This document shows positions 1-44,815 of a stretch of DNA of 45,462 bases, one piece after another. The DNA is taken from assembly GCA_945878555.1 (NCBI GenBank), contig CAMDWI010000026.1, positions 1 through 45,462 of the forward strand, written 5' to 3'. A program made the translations under genes and the position numbers. The DNA comes from Klebsiella pneumoniae. Lineage in GTDB: Bacteria; Pseudomonadota; Gammaproteobacteria; Eutrophobiales; Eutrophobiaceae. The notes below the pieces were generated by a model that ran no database searches, had not been told where the DNA came from, and saw nothing but the letters and a program-made list of their open reading frames with translations. Positions within the stretch are counted from its first letter, which is position 1; each line of letters starts with the position of its first letter.

Positions 1-100
1 TGCCGGAATATTACCCTTCCAGACACGCTGTGAATACATCCATGTACGCTCGAGCGCCGCATCCATGCGGCTAACGGTCTGTCACGGTAATATTCCGGCA
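1..100. repeat. Cloverleaf-like palindromic element, copy 1
   Basis: Positions 1-14 (TGCCGGAATATTAC) are the exact reverse complement of 87-100, forming a closing arm. Inside it, CAGAC (20-24) can pair with GTCTG (77-81). The core then holds three consecutive small palindromes: 35-46 (TACAT-CC-ATGTA), 47-56 (CGCTCGAGCG) and 57-70 (CCGCAT-CC-ATGCGG). Bases 21-80 are identical, in inverted orientation, to 44052-44111, whereas the closing arms of the two copies are unrelated. The element lies about 110 bases past the 3' end of the receiver-HDOD gene, so it may serve as a terminator or 3'-end structure. The arm may extend beyond the left edge of the window. Confidence 0.85.
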
Positions 101-208
101 CCCAATCTGAACTGTCGTGGATTTCGGAACAGTTATTTAGATAACCGCAGACTGCTACCCAACGCAAATCACGCTGCGTGAGCAGGTAATTTCGAATTAT
201 CTAACCAC

Positions 209-41780: not shown

Positions 41781-41885
41781 AACCCCGCTTTATCCATAAT
41801 CTTTCCATTTTACTATTTATAATCCAGGCCCAGGATCGGCTATCATTACCGTTTTTGCATGCAAGTAATTCCGGAGGGGGAATCA

Positions 41886-43994
41886 ATGAAGTTAGAGCAA
41901 GTCCGTTTTATTATCCTGCTGGGTCTGGCAGTCGCCATCCCTGTTAATGCACAACCGGCCCAACCGGTACCCCCTGCCACCTCGCAGGACGCCCAGATTG
42001 TTGATTATCCTGCCTCCTTTTTTGAACGTTACCAGCCGCGTACTGCGCTCGATATCGTCAACCAGATACCCGGCTTCGTCCTGAATAACGGGGACAGTGA
42101 ACGCGGGTTCGGCGGTGCGGTGGGTAATGTCATGATCAATGACCGTCGCCCGAGCGCCAAACAGGATCTGCCCTCCCAGATTCTGGGCAGGATCCCTTCA
42201 AACCAGGTCGAGCGGGTGGAACTGATCCGCGGCCAGGTCCGGAACATTGATCTGCAAGGTCATACACTCATCGCCAATGTCATTCTGCGTACTGATGCGC
42301 CGGCCACCGCACGTTGGGAATCTTCCATGCGTTATAACTTCTCGGTTTTTCCACCTACCTATGACCTGGGAGTGTCGTTGTCAGACCGCTGGGGCGACAT
42401 TGAATATAACGCCGGTATACGCGGCCGCAGTGGCAGCAATGGTGATGATGGTACAGACCGGGAATACAACAGCGCCGGTGTGCTCAGCGAAACCACGTTC
42501 GACCGCTTCAACAATCGCGCCTACAACGGTGCCGGTACGCTGAATGCATCCACCTGGCTGGGTGAAAACTTCGTCCGCCTGAACACGGAGCTGTTCGTCG
42601 AATCACGTGATACCCACCTGGGCTCCCATATCACCCCGCAGTTGCCCGGCAATGACCCCGGCCGGGAGGCAACAAATGGTGACATCATGCTGAAGCGCTA
42701 TGAACTCGGTACTGATATTGAGCGGCTGTTGCAAAAGGACCTGCTCGGCAAGGCCATCCTGTTGTTCTCCTACAAGGACAATGATGTACTGGACGATGAA
42801 CTGATCTTTGATACAAATGACCATGTCACCTTGCAGACCATTGCGGATACAGAAACGGTCACCACTGAACTTATCACCCGTTTCGAGTTTGACTGGGCAC
42901 GCTGGGCAGACCACGCCCTGCAGGCCAATTTTGAGCTGGCCTATAACCAGCTGGAAAATGCCCTGTTGCAGACTGAAAATACCGGCACAGGCGCTACCGA
43001 GGTCATCGTTCCGGGTGCGAATACAACAGTCGAAGAGACCCGTGGCGATTTCATGTTGCAGGACACCTGGACATTGGGCGAGTTTGAAGTGGACATGGGC
43101 ATCGGTGGAGAAGTCTCCGAGATCTCGCAGAGCGGAGATGCCGAACAAAAGCGTGACTTCTTTTTTATCAAACCGCTCGCCATGCTGACCTATTCACCGT
43201 CAAAAATCTCACAGACACGATTGCGCGTGTTACGTGAGATCGGCCAGCTGAATTTCAGCGAGTTTGTCAGTACCGCTGTGTTTGAGGACAATGATCTCGC
43301 CCTTGGCAATCCGAACCTGCGCCCGGAGACTACCTGGATCAGCGAGATCAGCCATGAACGGCGTTTCGGGGAGGTAGGAGTGATCACACTGACTGCGTTC
43401 CATCACTGGATTACCGACGTGCAGGACCTGTTACCCATTACCGACGAATTCGAAGTGCCCGGTAATATCGGTGATGGCCGGCGCTGGGGCCTGGAACTTG
43501 AAGGTGCAATGCCGTTGACCTGGCTTGGTCTGGTGGGCAGTCGCCTTGATGTGCAATTACGCTGGCAGGATTCTTCGGTCACCGATCCGGTCACCGGACA
43601 ATCCCGGGTATTGTCGTCGGTCGTGGGCTTCCCCCGCCCGTTCCCGTTTCGCGATGAGCTGGAGCTTATTGGTGTCATAAAATACCGGCAGGATTTTCGC
43701 GAGGCAAAGGTGTCCTGGGGTGGCGATGTACGCGAGCGCCGTGAACGTCCCCGTTTCAAGGTAAATGAGATCGAGATTCTGGACGAGGGTACCGATTTGA
43801 ATCTTTTCGTCGAAACCACACGTTACTTTGACCTGAAGATCCGCCTCGAAGGCCAGAACCTGTTGAACGTCAACCAGTCACGTGACCGTTATCTGTATGA
43901 GGGCCTGCGCGACCTCAGCCCGATCCGCCGGACCGTATTGCGGGACCGCAATGACGGGACGCGATTCTTTATCTCGGTCAGTGGTAATTTCTAG
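41886..43994 (+). CDS. TonB-dependent outer-membrane receptor
   Basis: This 702-residue protein has a signal peptide (ending near NAQPAQ), a plug domain (about residues 35-140, with YQPRTALDIVNQIPGFVLNN and RIPSNQVERVELIRGQ) and a long beta-barrel ending in Phe (RFFISVSGNF), the usual signal for outer-membrane assembly. It would import a large substrate such as a metal chelate or carbohydrate; nothing in the sequence identifies it. No TonB box is obvious near the mature N-terminus. ATG 41886 follows GGAGGGGG closely. A TATAAT (41818-41823) lies upstream without a clear -35. Neighbours suggest no specific ligand. Confidence 0.85.
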   Translation: MKLEQVRFIILLGLAVAIPVNAQPAQPVPPATSQDAQIVDYPASFFERYQPRTALDIVNQIPGFVLNNGDSERGFGGAVGNVMINDRRPSAKQDLPSQILGRIPSNQVERVELIRGQVRNIDLQGHTLIANVILRTDAPATARWESSMRYNFSVFPPTYDLGVSLSDRWGDIEYNAGIRGRSGSNGDDGTDREYNSAGVLSETTFDRFNNRAYNGAGTLNASTWLGENFVRLNTELFVESRDTHLGSHITPQLPGNDPGREATNGDIMLKRYELGTDIERLLQKDLLGKAILLFSYKDNDVLDDELIFDTNDHVTLQTIADTETVTTELITRFEFDWARWADHALQANFELAYNQLENALLQTENTGTGATEVIVPGANTTVEETRGDFMLQDTWTLGEFEVDMGIGGEVSEISQSGDAEQKRDFFFIKPLAMLTYSPSKISQTRLRVLREIGQLNFSEFVSTAVFEDNDLALGNPNLRPETTWISEISHERRFGEVGVITLTAFHHWITDVQDLLPITDEFEVPGNIGDGRRWGLELEGAMPLTWLGLVGSRLDVQLRWQDSSVTDPVTGQSRVLSSVVGFPRPFPFRDELELIGVIKYRQDFREAKVSWGGDVRERRERPRFKVNEIEILDEGTDLNLFVETTRYFDLKIRLEGQNLLNVNQSRDRYLYEGLRDLSPIRRTVLRDRNDGTRFFISVSGNF

Positions 43995-44024
43995 ATAAGA
44001 GATCCAGATTCCAGTAAAGATCGG

Positions 44025-44138
44025 GATCAGCCGTCTGGCTATAATTGTGAAAGACCGTTAGCCGCATGGATGCGGCGCTCGAGCGTACATGGATGTATTC
44101 ACAGCGTGTCTTGAACGATTATAGCCAGACGGCTGATC
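44025..44138. repeat. Cloverleaf-like palindromic element, copy 2
   Basis: Positions 44025-44045 are the exact reverse complement of 44118-44138, a perfect 21-bp closing arm. The inner 60 bases (44052-44111) are identical, in inverted orientation, to 21-80 of the first copy, with the same three small hairpins. The arm sequence is unrelated to the arm of copy 1. It lies between the convergent TonB receptor and PabC-like genes, a natural place for a bidirectional terminator. Confidence 0.88.
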
Positions 44139-44158
44139 TACCAAGGAATCGTGTTCTG

Positions 44159-44815
44159 TTATACAAGCAAGACTTCTCGCCAGCCTATCTGTGAGTTAAT
44201 CAGATAAACCTTTGTGCAGGTTTTTAAATCTTTGAGCAGTATGGGTCGTTCTACCAGGCGGCCCTGCTGCATCAGGTTAGCGCGGCAGGTACCCGGCCGG
44301 ACACCATTACCGGATGGCGGGGTGTAATAGACCCCGTCAATATCAACGACCAGGTTGGAAGTGGCGGACCCGGTTACTTCCCCCCGGGTGTTCCATAACA
44401 GAACCTCATCCACACCCTCAACAGTGCTGATGAGCTCATCAAAATGATCACGGCGTGTGGTGCTGTGATATATAAAGATATTGTCAGTATCGACCGGCTT
44501 GCTCGCAGGTGACGCCCGCACCGGCCGCCGATCTTCACTCGCCGGTTTTGCCATCATGTTGAGGACGCCGTCACTATGCAGCTCGACCCGGACGAGACTG
44601 TCGCAGGTCAGGTTTTTCACCACATCATCCAGCTGCGCCAGTATACTTGCCTCATCGTAAGCAAATGACAACTGTTCGGCTGAGGCATTTAACCGTTGCA
44701 GATGCTCGGGCAACAACCAGAATCCGCAACAATCTTCCCATAAAATCGTTTCAACCAGGGCAAAGTCTGTCTGCTCGCCGGCGGGAATATTGGTCTTGTC
44801 CTGTAACTGTGACAC
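44159..44815 (-). CDS. Aminotransferase class IV-like protein lacking the PLP lysine
   Basis: This 218-residue protein is most like 4-amino-4-deoxychorismate lyase (PabC) and the PabC part of PabB-PabC fusions. Recognisable segments are ALVETILWEDCCGFWLLPEH, EVTGSATSNLVVDIDGVYYT and GVRPGTCRANLM, and it ends with KVYLINSQIGWREV. The PLP-binding Lys expected in the HKTTxR motif is Ser (YHSTTRRDHFDEL), which should abolish Schiff-base formation. Translation probably starts at GTG 44815, with AGGAG six bases upstream. It may be a decayed, regulatory or repurposed relative. No pabB lies nearby. Confidence 0.8.
   Translation of the reverse strand: MSQLQDKTNIPAGEQTDFALVETILWEDCCGFWLLPEHLQRLNASAEQLSFAYDEASILAQLDDVVKNLTCDSLVRVELHSDGVLNMMAKPASEDRRPVRASPASKPVDTDNIFIYHSTTRRDHFDELISTVEGVDEVLLWNTRGEVTGSATSNLVVDIDGVYYTPPSGNGVRPGTCRANLMQQGRLVERPILLKDLKTCTKVYLINSQIGWREVLLV

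What the first reader, a model, noticed from the sequence alone, without database searches (positions are those of the whole stretch)
1..100. Conserved three-hairpin core closed by a copy-specific stem
The core (21-80) is identical over 60 bases to 44052-44111, yet the closing arms are unrelated in sequence: 14 bp here, 21 bp in the other copy. Each arm is perfectly self-complementary. A conserved loop with completely replaced but still paired stems is the signature of either strong selection on structure or a mobile unit that inserts into existing hairpins. With its three inner hairpins the whole would fold like a cloverleaf. I know no named family that fits.
Basis: partly seen in the sequence, partly recalled or inferred. 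Interest (0 to 1): 0.85.

Follow-up and report, generated by a model that had tools for sequence, protein, structure and literature searches.

The report
Mobile hairpin with swappable paired arms
A short non-coding DNA element, found in dozens of copies mostly behind genes in this bacterium and in about a fifth of the sampled genomes of its class (likely Gammaproteobacteria), keeps a nearly fixed hairpin core while its closing stem differs between copies in matched pairs, and it likely spreads like the Yersinia repeat YPAL, whose core it shares.

Summary
The 58-60 nt core occurs in 73 distinct sequences among the stretches of this genome that I fetched, and in 76 of 369 genomes sampled from its class. 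It folds as a three-way junction (closing stem plus two hairpins, not three).

The arms differ between copies yet pair: 57 of 65 own copies have at least 20 Watson-Crick pairs of 26, against 0 of 3546 cross-pairings of unlike arms. In this genus they belong to the element: many loci share one arm type, and orthologous copies show paired substitutions. G-U pairs are almost absent in the arms, which points to pairing kept at the DNA level.

The unit here is about 175 bp with inverted ends CTAAATAACTGTTCCGAA. It sits mostly between convergent genes (34 convergent, 21 tandem, 2 divergent), and its ends often hold their stop codons. The core is shared with Yersinia YPAL/RU-2 and Rfam Ysr224; inverted ends and lack of target duplications differ, so it is a relative, not YPAL itself. 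No clean empty site and no transposase were found.

Boldest open reading: on the other strand both loops match the CsrA/Rsm site CANGGANG.

The parts
1..140 (+). copy 1 of the element (left end missing; the contig starts inside it, contig C24 likely holds the rest)
   Evidence: (L423)
1..15 (+). left arm, pairs with 86-100
22..79 (+). conserved core GAC...GTC (three-way junction)
27..49 (+). inner hairpin P2, loop 39-42 (TCCA; on the other strand ACATGGATGT)
51..76 (+). inner hairpin P3, loop 62-65 (TCCA; on the other strand CATGGATG)
86..100 (+). right arm
119..140 (+). right inverted end GGATTTCGGAACAGTTATTTAG
43991..44167 (-). copy 2 of the element, between two convergent ORFs (41859-43994 + and 44159-44815 -)
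43991..44012 (.). outer inverted end of copy 2 (degenerate), holds the stop codon of the + ORF at 43992-43994
44025..44045 (.). arm of copy 2, pairs with 44118-44138
44053..44110 (-). conserved core of copy 2
44118..44138 (.). other arm of copy 2
44145..44167 (.). other outer inverted end of copy 2, holds the stop codon of the - ORF at 44159-44161

Best explanation
It is a short non-coding repeat that shares its core with the Yersinia element YPAL, sits in dozens of copies mostly behind genes, likely moves with the help of a transposase supplied from elsewhere, and has closing arms that differ in matched pairs, likely because only their pairing matters. SHOWN: the core is nearly fixed while arms, and the stems of both inner hairpins, differ by paired changes. 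In this genus the arms belong to the unit, which ends in inverted repeats CTAAATAACTGTTCCGAA that often hold the stop codons of the ORFs on either side, and it lies mostly between convergent ORFs. INFERRED: copies spread by an enzyme acting on the hairpin or on the outer ends. Landing behind genes is tolerated because it only replaces a gene tail. Arm pairing is kept at the DNA level (cruciform or single-strand hairpin used in movement, with arm-to-arm templating perhaps helping), since G-U pairs are no more tolerated in the arms than mismatches.
For: Copies. Besides C24, eight places in the genome match 92-94 nt of copy 1 at 97-100%; three of them are at contig ends and may be parts of fewer loci, the other five lie inside contigs with other neighbours. 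Arm pairing: at least 12 of 14 in 77 of 103 pattern hits against 13 of 2042 cross-pairings. Covariation 0.667 against 0.168 shuffled, and 0.780 against 0.176 in a second set. Arm G-U cells: 2 of 756 and 3 of 476. Orthologous copies, 17 pairs counted of 20: core 41/983, arms 65/908, flanks 952/9414 differences; 14 compensated and 35 one-sided pair changes, 5 of the latter to or from G-U. Context by length-called ORFs: own 34 convergent, 21 tandem, 2 divergent; G004 23, 13, 1; gene gaps in five long stretches 13, 26, 15. 65 of 148 adjacent stop codons lie 77-93 nt from the core centre, i.e. at the unit's ends. YPAL core: score 60 against at most 42 in 500 shuffles.
Against: No clean empty site. 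The G004 ortholog of copy 2 looks like a deletion remnant that keeps part of an outer end. Other site comparisons were blurred by other rearrangements or lacked the neighbour gene. No target-site duplication at 64 elements with both ends. No transposase: the 76 neighbouring facing ends in fetched loci all lie within 420 bp, and 10 ORFs beside unpaired ends show no transposase domain; no genome-wide search for one was run. The core also sits in an unrelated outer frame in G103, so core and ends may have separate histories. One-sided changes outnumber compensated ones between near relatives, and half of the compensated ones come from one locus.
Confidence: 0.66

Rival explanations
1. The core inserts into loops of existing hairpins such as terminators, so the arms are target DNA.
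For: In Marinobacter records cores and P3 stems are alike while arms are unrelated. Hairpin loops of the element itself carry inserts in own genus, G008 and G071. A few copies have outer arms followed by a T run (L282, L290).
Against: Arm types shared by many loci. Copies lying about 70 bp behind a terminator-like hairpin with a T run (L031) or just behind one (L085). No matching hairpin at the two unoccupied sites read. Not tested in Marinobacter, where it would matter most.
Confidence: 0.1
2. The element works as RNA at mRNA 3' ends (terminator or stabiliser), and selection on the RNA fold keeps the arms paired.
For: Position behind genes. PMC2229807 (passage) says YPAL might influence RNA stability of upstream transcripts. 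Strong RNA folds. Tandem-context copies lean to the TCC strand as sense: 16 to 5 in own genome, 7 to 6 in G004.
Against: G-U pairs are almost absent in the arms. One-sided changes involve G-U in only 5 of 35 cases, about what one in six equally likely changes would give (my arithmetic).
Confidence: 0.2
3. The complementary strand is an RNA with two CsrA/Rsm sites, one per hairpin, so the copies act as scattered CsrA-binding sites.
For: On that strand the P2 loop reads CANGGANG in 54 of 54 and 33 of 34 sequences, the P3 loop in 45 of 54 and 31 of 34. The consensus A/U-CANGGANG-U/A and the SELEX site RUACARGGAUGU, mostly with a six-base loop, are in print (passages of PMC4353343 and PMC7652899). 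CsrA is found in 71 of 76 genomes with the element against 242 of 293 without (lists compared by eye; Fisher p 0.019).
Against: No bias to the GGA strand as sense; if anything the reverse. Five genomes with the element gave no CsrA match, one of them 98% complete (three listed as without a match, two inferred from absence in the list of matches). P2 invariance in A1 is partly fixed by the search pattern, and A2 was found with a model built from A1. No binding data.
Confidence: 0.2

Closest known systems
YPAL / RU-2 of Yersinia (De Gregorio 2006, not held; described in PMC2229807 and PMC2759123, passages read)
   Same: Same core (score 60 against at most 42 in shuffles), 167-168 bp against about 175 bp, many copies, internal pairing.
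   Different: Here the unit has terminal inverted repeats and no target duplication. YPAL is described with internal repeats and 3-26 bp duplications. Its outer sequence does not show CTAAATA...TATTTAG.
Rfam RF02770 Ysr224 (Yersinia sRNA 224)
   Same: Its consensus holds the same core. PMC9029176 lists it among the 20 most prevalent sRNAs in bacteria (passages).
   Different: All matches in 20 genomes here are below its gathering score of 70 (best 42.2).
Bacterial MITEs at tail-to-tail genes (P. fluorescens R0/R2, PMC2718517, passages read)
   Same: Non-coding, inverted repeats, high copy, tail-repeat-tail bias.
   Different: R0 and R2 share ends with insertion sequences; no such partner was found here. 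Conserved three-way-junction core spread over a class.
REP / GTAG- and CGTC-tagged repeats (PMC3733652, passages read)
   Same: High-copy palindromes outside genes, compensated stem changes.
   Different: REPs are 20-40 bp with a GTAG or CGTC tag; this unit is about 175 bp with a fixed core.
CsrB/RsmZ-type sponge RNAs
   Same: Hairpins that show GGA in a six-base loop on one strand.
   Different: Mobile-looking DNA repeat, two sites per copy, no sense-strand bias.

Membership tests
YPAL/RU-2 | shared core sequence | tested here: met
YPAL/RU-2 | inverted repeats internal, not at the ends (PMC2229807) | tested here: not met
   inverted ends CTAAATA...TATTTAG in own genus, G008, G071, G159
YPAL/RU-2 | target-site duplication of 3-26 bp (PMC2229807) | tested here: not met
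   64 elements: 2 repeats of 3 bp (0.83 expected), 1 of 4 bp (0.38 expected), none of 5-9 bp; longer ones not tested
YPAL/RU-2 | inserted close behind stop codons (recalled from the 2006 paper, not read) | tested here: met
YPAL/RU-2 | sites with and without the element between close strains | tested here: inconclusive
   element absent at some orthologous sites but none clean
Rfam RF02770 Ysr224 | score at or above the gathering cut-off (70) | tested here: not met
   best 42.2 in 20 genomes; none in the window
MITE | short, non-coding, terminal inverted repeats, many copies | tested here: met
MITE | autonomous transposon with the same ends | tested here: inconclusive
   none among 76 facing end pairs in fetched loci nor among 10 ORFs beside unpaired ends; genomes not scanned for it
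REP/REPIN | 20-40 bp palindrome with GTAG or CGTC tag | tested here: not met
   length and core; definition
REP/REPIN | linked RAYT transposase | not tested
CsrA/Rsm-binding RNA | GGA in a six-base hairpin loop closed by C-G | tested here: met
   CANGGANG in both loops in 30 of 34 sequences of A2, sequence level only
CsrA/Rsm-binding RNA | the GGA strand is the RNA strand behind genes | tested here: not met
   tandem contexts 5 GGA-sense against 16 TCC-sense in own genome, 6 against 7 in G004
CsrA/Rsm-binding RNA | binding by CsrA | not testable with these tools
   needs a bench test

The most novel reading that the evidence does not exclude
A class-wide mobile element carries a ready-made CsrA/Rsm docking module: two adjacent hairpins whose loops, on one strand, are the CANGGANG site. 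By multiplying behind genes it would turn mobile DNA into a distributed CsrA sponge, with the drifting arms as a mere clamp that holds the two sites together.
Probability: 0.18. Interest if true: 0.85.

Novelty: new variant of a known kind. Interest (0 to 1): 0.6.

Why it matters
It ties a repeat known from Yersinia to a family found in 76 of 369 sampled genomes of the class, and gives it a defined three-way-junction core. It also gives a natural case in which a long stem stays well paired while its sequence turns over, with G-U pairs shunned. That makes DNA-level pairing, as opposed to RNA folding, testable. If the loop match to the CsrA site is real, mobile DNA would be feeding a global regulator.

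Tried and rejected
Three inner hairpins: only two are conserved. Insertion into terminators: arms are shared between loci, and some copies lie behind a terminator-like hairpin. Phage, plasmid or E. coli carriage: no match in viral contigs (exact pattern), phages, plasmids or E. coli genomes; against that, a table in PMC2847712 gives 3 YPAL matches in E. coli, which my composite query did not find. Rfam: no family at its gathering score in the window; weak microRNA-type matches to the long stem ignored. A clean empty site was sought for copy 2, copy 1 (the neighbouring gene gave no match in G004), a G008 copy, a 20 kb stretch with three copies and a G004 copy; none was clean. Literature by sequence string gave nothing related. 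The paper on YPAL itself is not held.

Rows dropped before counts; 5 truncated hits and 17 without GTC in range. Alignment A1: 52 of the 81 sequences printed (which asked for at least 10 standard arm pairs, G-U allowed) plus the two window copies; 3 of 20 pairs skipped, and ambiguous tandem-array or broken pairs left out; edge, far and inside-ORF copies kept apart as printed; identical copies merged; cross-pairings only between arms differing at more than 8 of 26.

Full report
What is there. Window 1-100 and 44032-44137 fold into a long closing stem around a core that is identical over 60 bases in the two copies. A covariance model built from relatives and from these two copies finds just these two places in the window, at 76 bits each. 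Copy 1 is cut by the contig start; a copy at the end of contig C24 shares its right flank and is likely the other half of the same locus. Copy 2 lies between two convergent ORFs, and both stop codons fall in its outer ends.

How common it is. BLAST searches of this 3.55 Mb genome score only 40 candidates each and list 40-42 matches. With model-based searches and fetched stretches I count 73 distinct core-bearing sequences, identical ones merged and contig-end halves possibly counted twice. In the same genus G004 has many; G001, G002 and G003 gave no match. Named records (80 of 119 stretches listed with titles) are mostly Gammaproteobacteria such as Marinobacter, Stenotrophomonas, Microbulbifer, Rheinheimera and Halopseudomonas; two carry alphaproteobacterial MAG labels.

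Structure. The alignment of 54 sequences gives a three-way junction: arms plus GAC/GTC, hairpin P2 with an unpaired GTRAA, and hairpin P3. The closing helix (17 pairs) is paired in 97.3% of cells, and each of its 14 arm pairs occurs as all four Watson-Crick types. The covariation score is 0.667 against 0.168 in shuffles and at most 0.14 in slid versions. A second set of 34 sequences from 29 loci, found by the model and aligned to it, gives 0.780 against 0.176. In 103 pattern hits, not chosen for pairing, at least 12 of the 14 arm positions pair in 77, against 13 of 2042 when arms of different copies are combined. In own copies 57 of 65 have at least 20 Watson-Crick pairs of 26; none of 3546 cross-pairings of unlike arms does.

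DNA or RNA pairing. G-U makes up 2 of 756 arm cells in A1 and 3 of 476 in A2, beside 14 mismatches there. Between orthologous copies of G000 and G004, 5 of 35 one-sided changes involve G-U. An RNA helix under selection should favour G-U over true mismatches; this does not. At the loop-closing positions of P2 and P3, A-T and G-T alternate.

How the arms change. In 17 orthologous pairs, differences are 41/983 in the core, 65/908 in the arms and 952/9414 in the flanks. There are 14 compensated and 35 one-sided arm-pair changes among 454 pairs; 7 of the 14 are from L288/L316, where the arms are nearly replaced. By my arithmetic about 2 double changes would be expected if both sides changed independently. 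So arms are inherited with the element and change a little less than the flanks, with an excess of paired changes; but correction is not instant.

The larger unit. In this genus the ends are CTAAATAACTGTTCCGAAATCC and its complement, about 175 bp apart. Almost the same ends occur in other families (G071, 107 matches; G159) and in another genus of the same family (G008). The same ends also frame quite different palindromic repeats (L401, L407, L419, L422, L427) and coreless forms of 55, 93 and 102 bp (L426, L398, L408). In G103 the core sits in an unrelated frame, and the inner hairpin is flipped in two of the copies. The core is thus a module with more than one outer frame. No target duplication is seen at 64 units. 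All 76 neighbouring facing ends in the fetched loci lie within 420 bp, and 10 ORFs beside unpaired ends (GMP synthase and glutamine synthetase among them) show no transposase domain.

Place in the genome. Own copies: 34 convergent, 21 tandem, 2 divergent, 5 inside a called ORF, 11 not classed. G004: 23, 13, 1, 1, 10. Gene gaps of at least 60 bp in five long stretches of this genome, copies included: 13 convergent, 26 tandem, 15 divergent. Of 148 adjacent stop codons, 65 lie 77-93 nt from the core centre, the ends of the unit. ORFs were called by length only. Tail-to-tail bias is known for other repeats (PMC2718517, passages).

Relation to known things. The 168-nt RU-2/YPAL printed in PMC2759123 holds the same core on its other strand (score 60, best of 500 shuffles 42), as does the consensus of Rfam Ysr224. 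But two described YPAL features, internal repeats and 3-26 bp duplications (PMC2229807, passage), were tested and not met here. I therefore call it a relative of YPAL. In the held library 17 papers hold the word YPAL; in the passages I saw of six of them it is named for Yersinia and Erwinia, with 3 matches in E. coli in one table, and I saw no link to a class-wide family. PMC9029176 (passages) lists Ysr224 among the most prevalent sRNAs, so part of the spread is already visible in annotation. Sequence-string searches gave nothing related.

The CsrA reading. On the complementary strand the P2 loop is ACANGGAYGU in all 54 sequences of A1, though the search pattern fixed most of it. In A2, which the pattern did not choose (but a model built from A1 did), CANGGANG is in 33 of 34 P2 loops and 31 of 34 P3 loops. 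The free positions of the printed consensus are the variable ones here. Against it: no bias to that strand as sense, and five element-bearing genomes without a CsrA match. The 71 of 76 against 242 of 293 difference may only reflect genome reduction. I leave it as the boldest reading that is not excluded.

Noticed in passing
L183, L184, L246 (own genome); L429-L431, L435 (G071); L436-L439 (G008): Copies with roughly 50-100 bp inserts in the loop of P2 or P3; several of the inserts bring a further hairpin with a TCC loop.
   Followed up: partly
L401, L407, L419, L422, L427: The same end sequence CTAAATANNTGTTCCGAAW frames unrelated palindromic repeats (CTCGCAATGAC type and CGTCATGCCGGG type).
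   Followed up: partly
L415, L421 (G008): A unit with the same ends holds CCCACAGGATGTGGG and GGACAGGATGTCC hairpins (in two tandem copies in L421), like the CAGGA(U/A/C)G repeats described for CsrB in PMC7652899.
   Followed up: no
L279, L291, L293, L294: Tandem pairs of the element about 140-150 bp apart, same strand.
   Followed up: no
L059, L064, L081, L105: Pairs of copies in opposite orientation, cores about 200-350 bp apart, in several genera.
   Followed up: no
L119, L125: Contigs of a MAG titled Klebsiella pneumoniae; the L125 copy has the arms and core variant of the G004 copy L231, so the label is likely wrong.
   Followed up: no
L064, L079, L168 (L064 and L079 are Stenotrophomonas; L168 not named in the listing): Short tandem repeats (for example aagccaa and ggtcgta units) lie right beside copies.
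   Followed up: no
window 1; starts of contigs C8, C24, C32; end of C29: Several contigs of this assembly break at copies of the element.
   Followed up: partly
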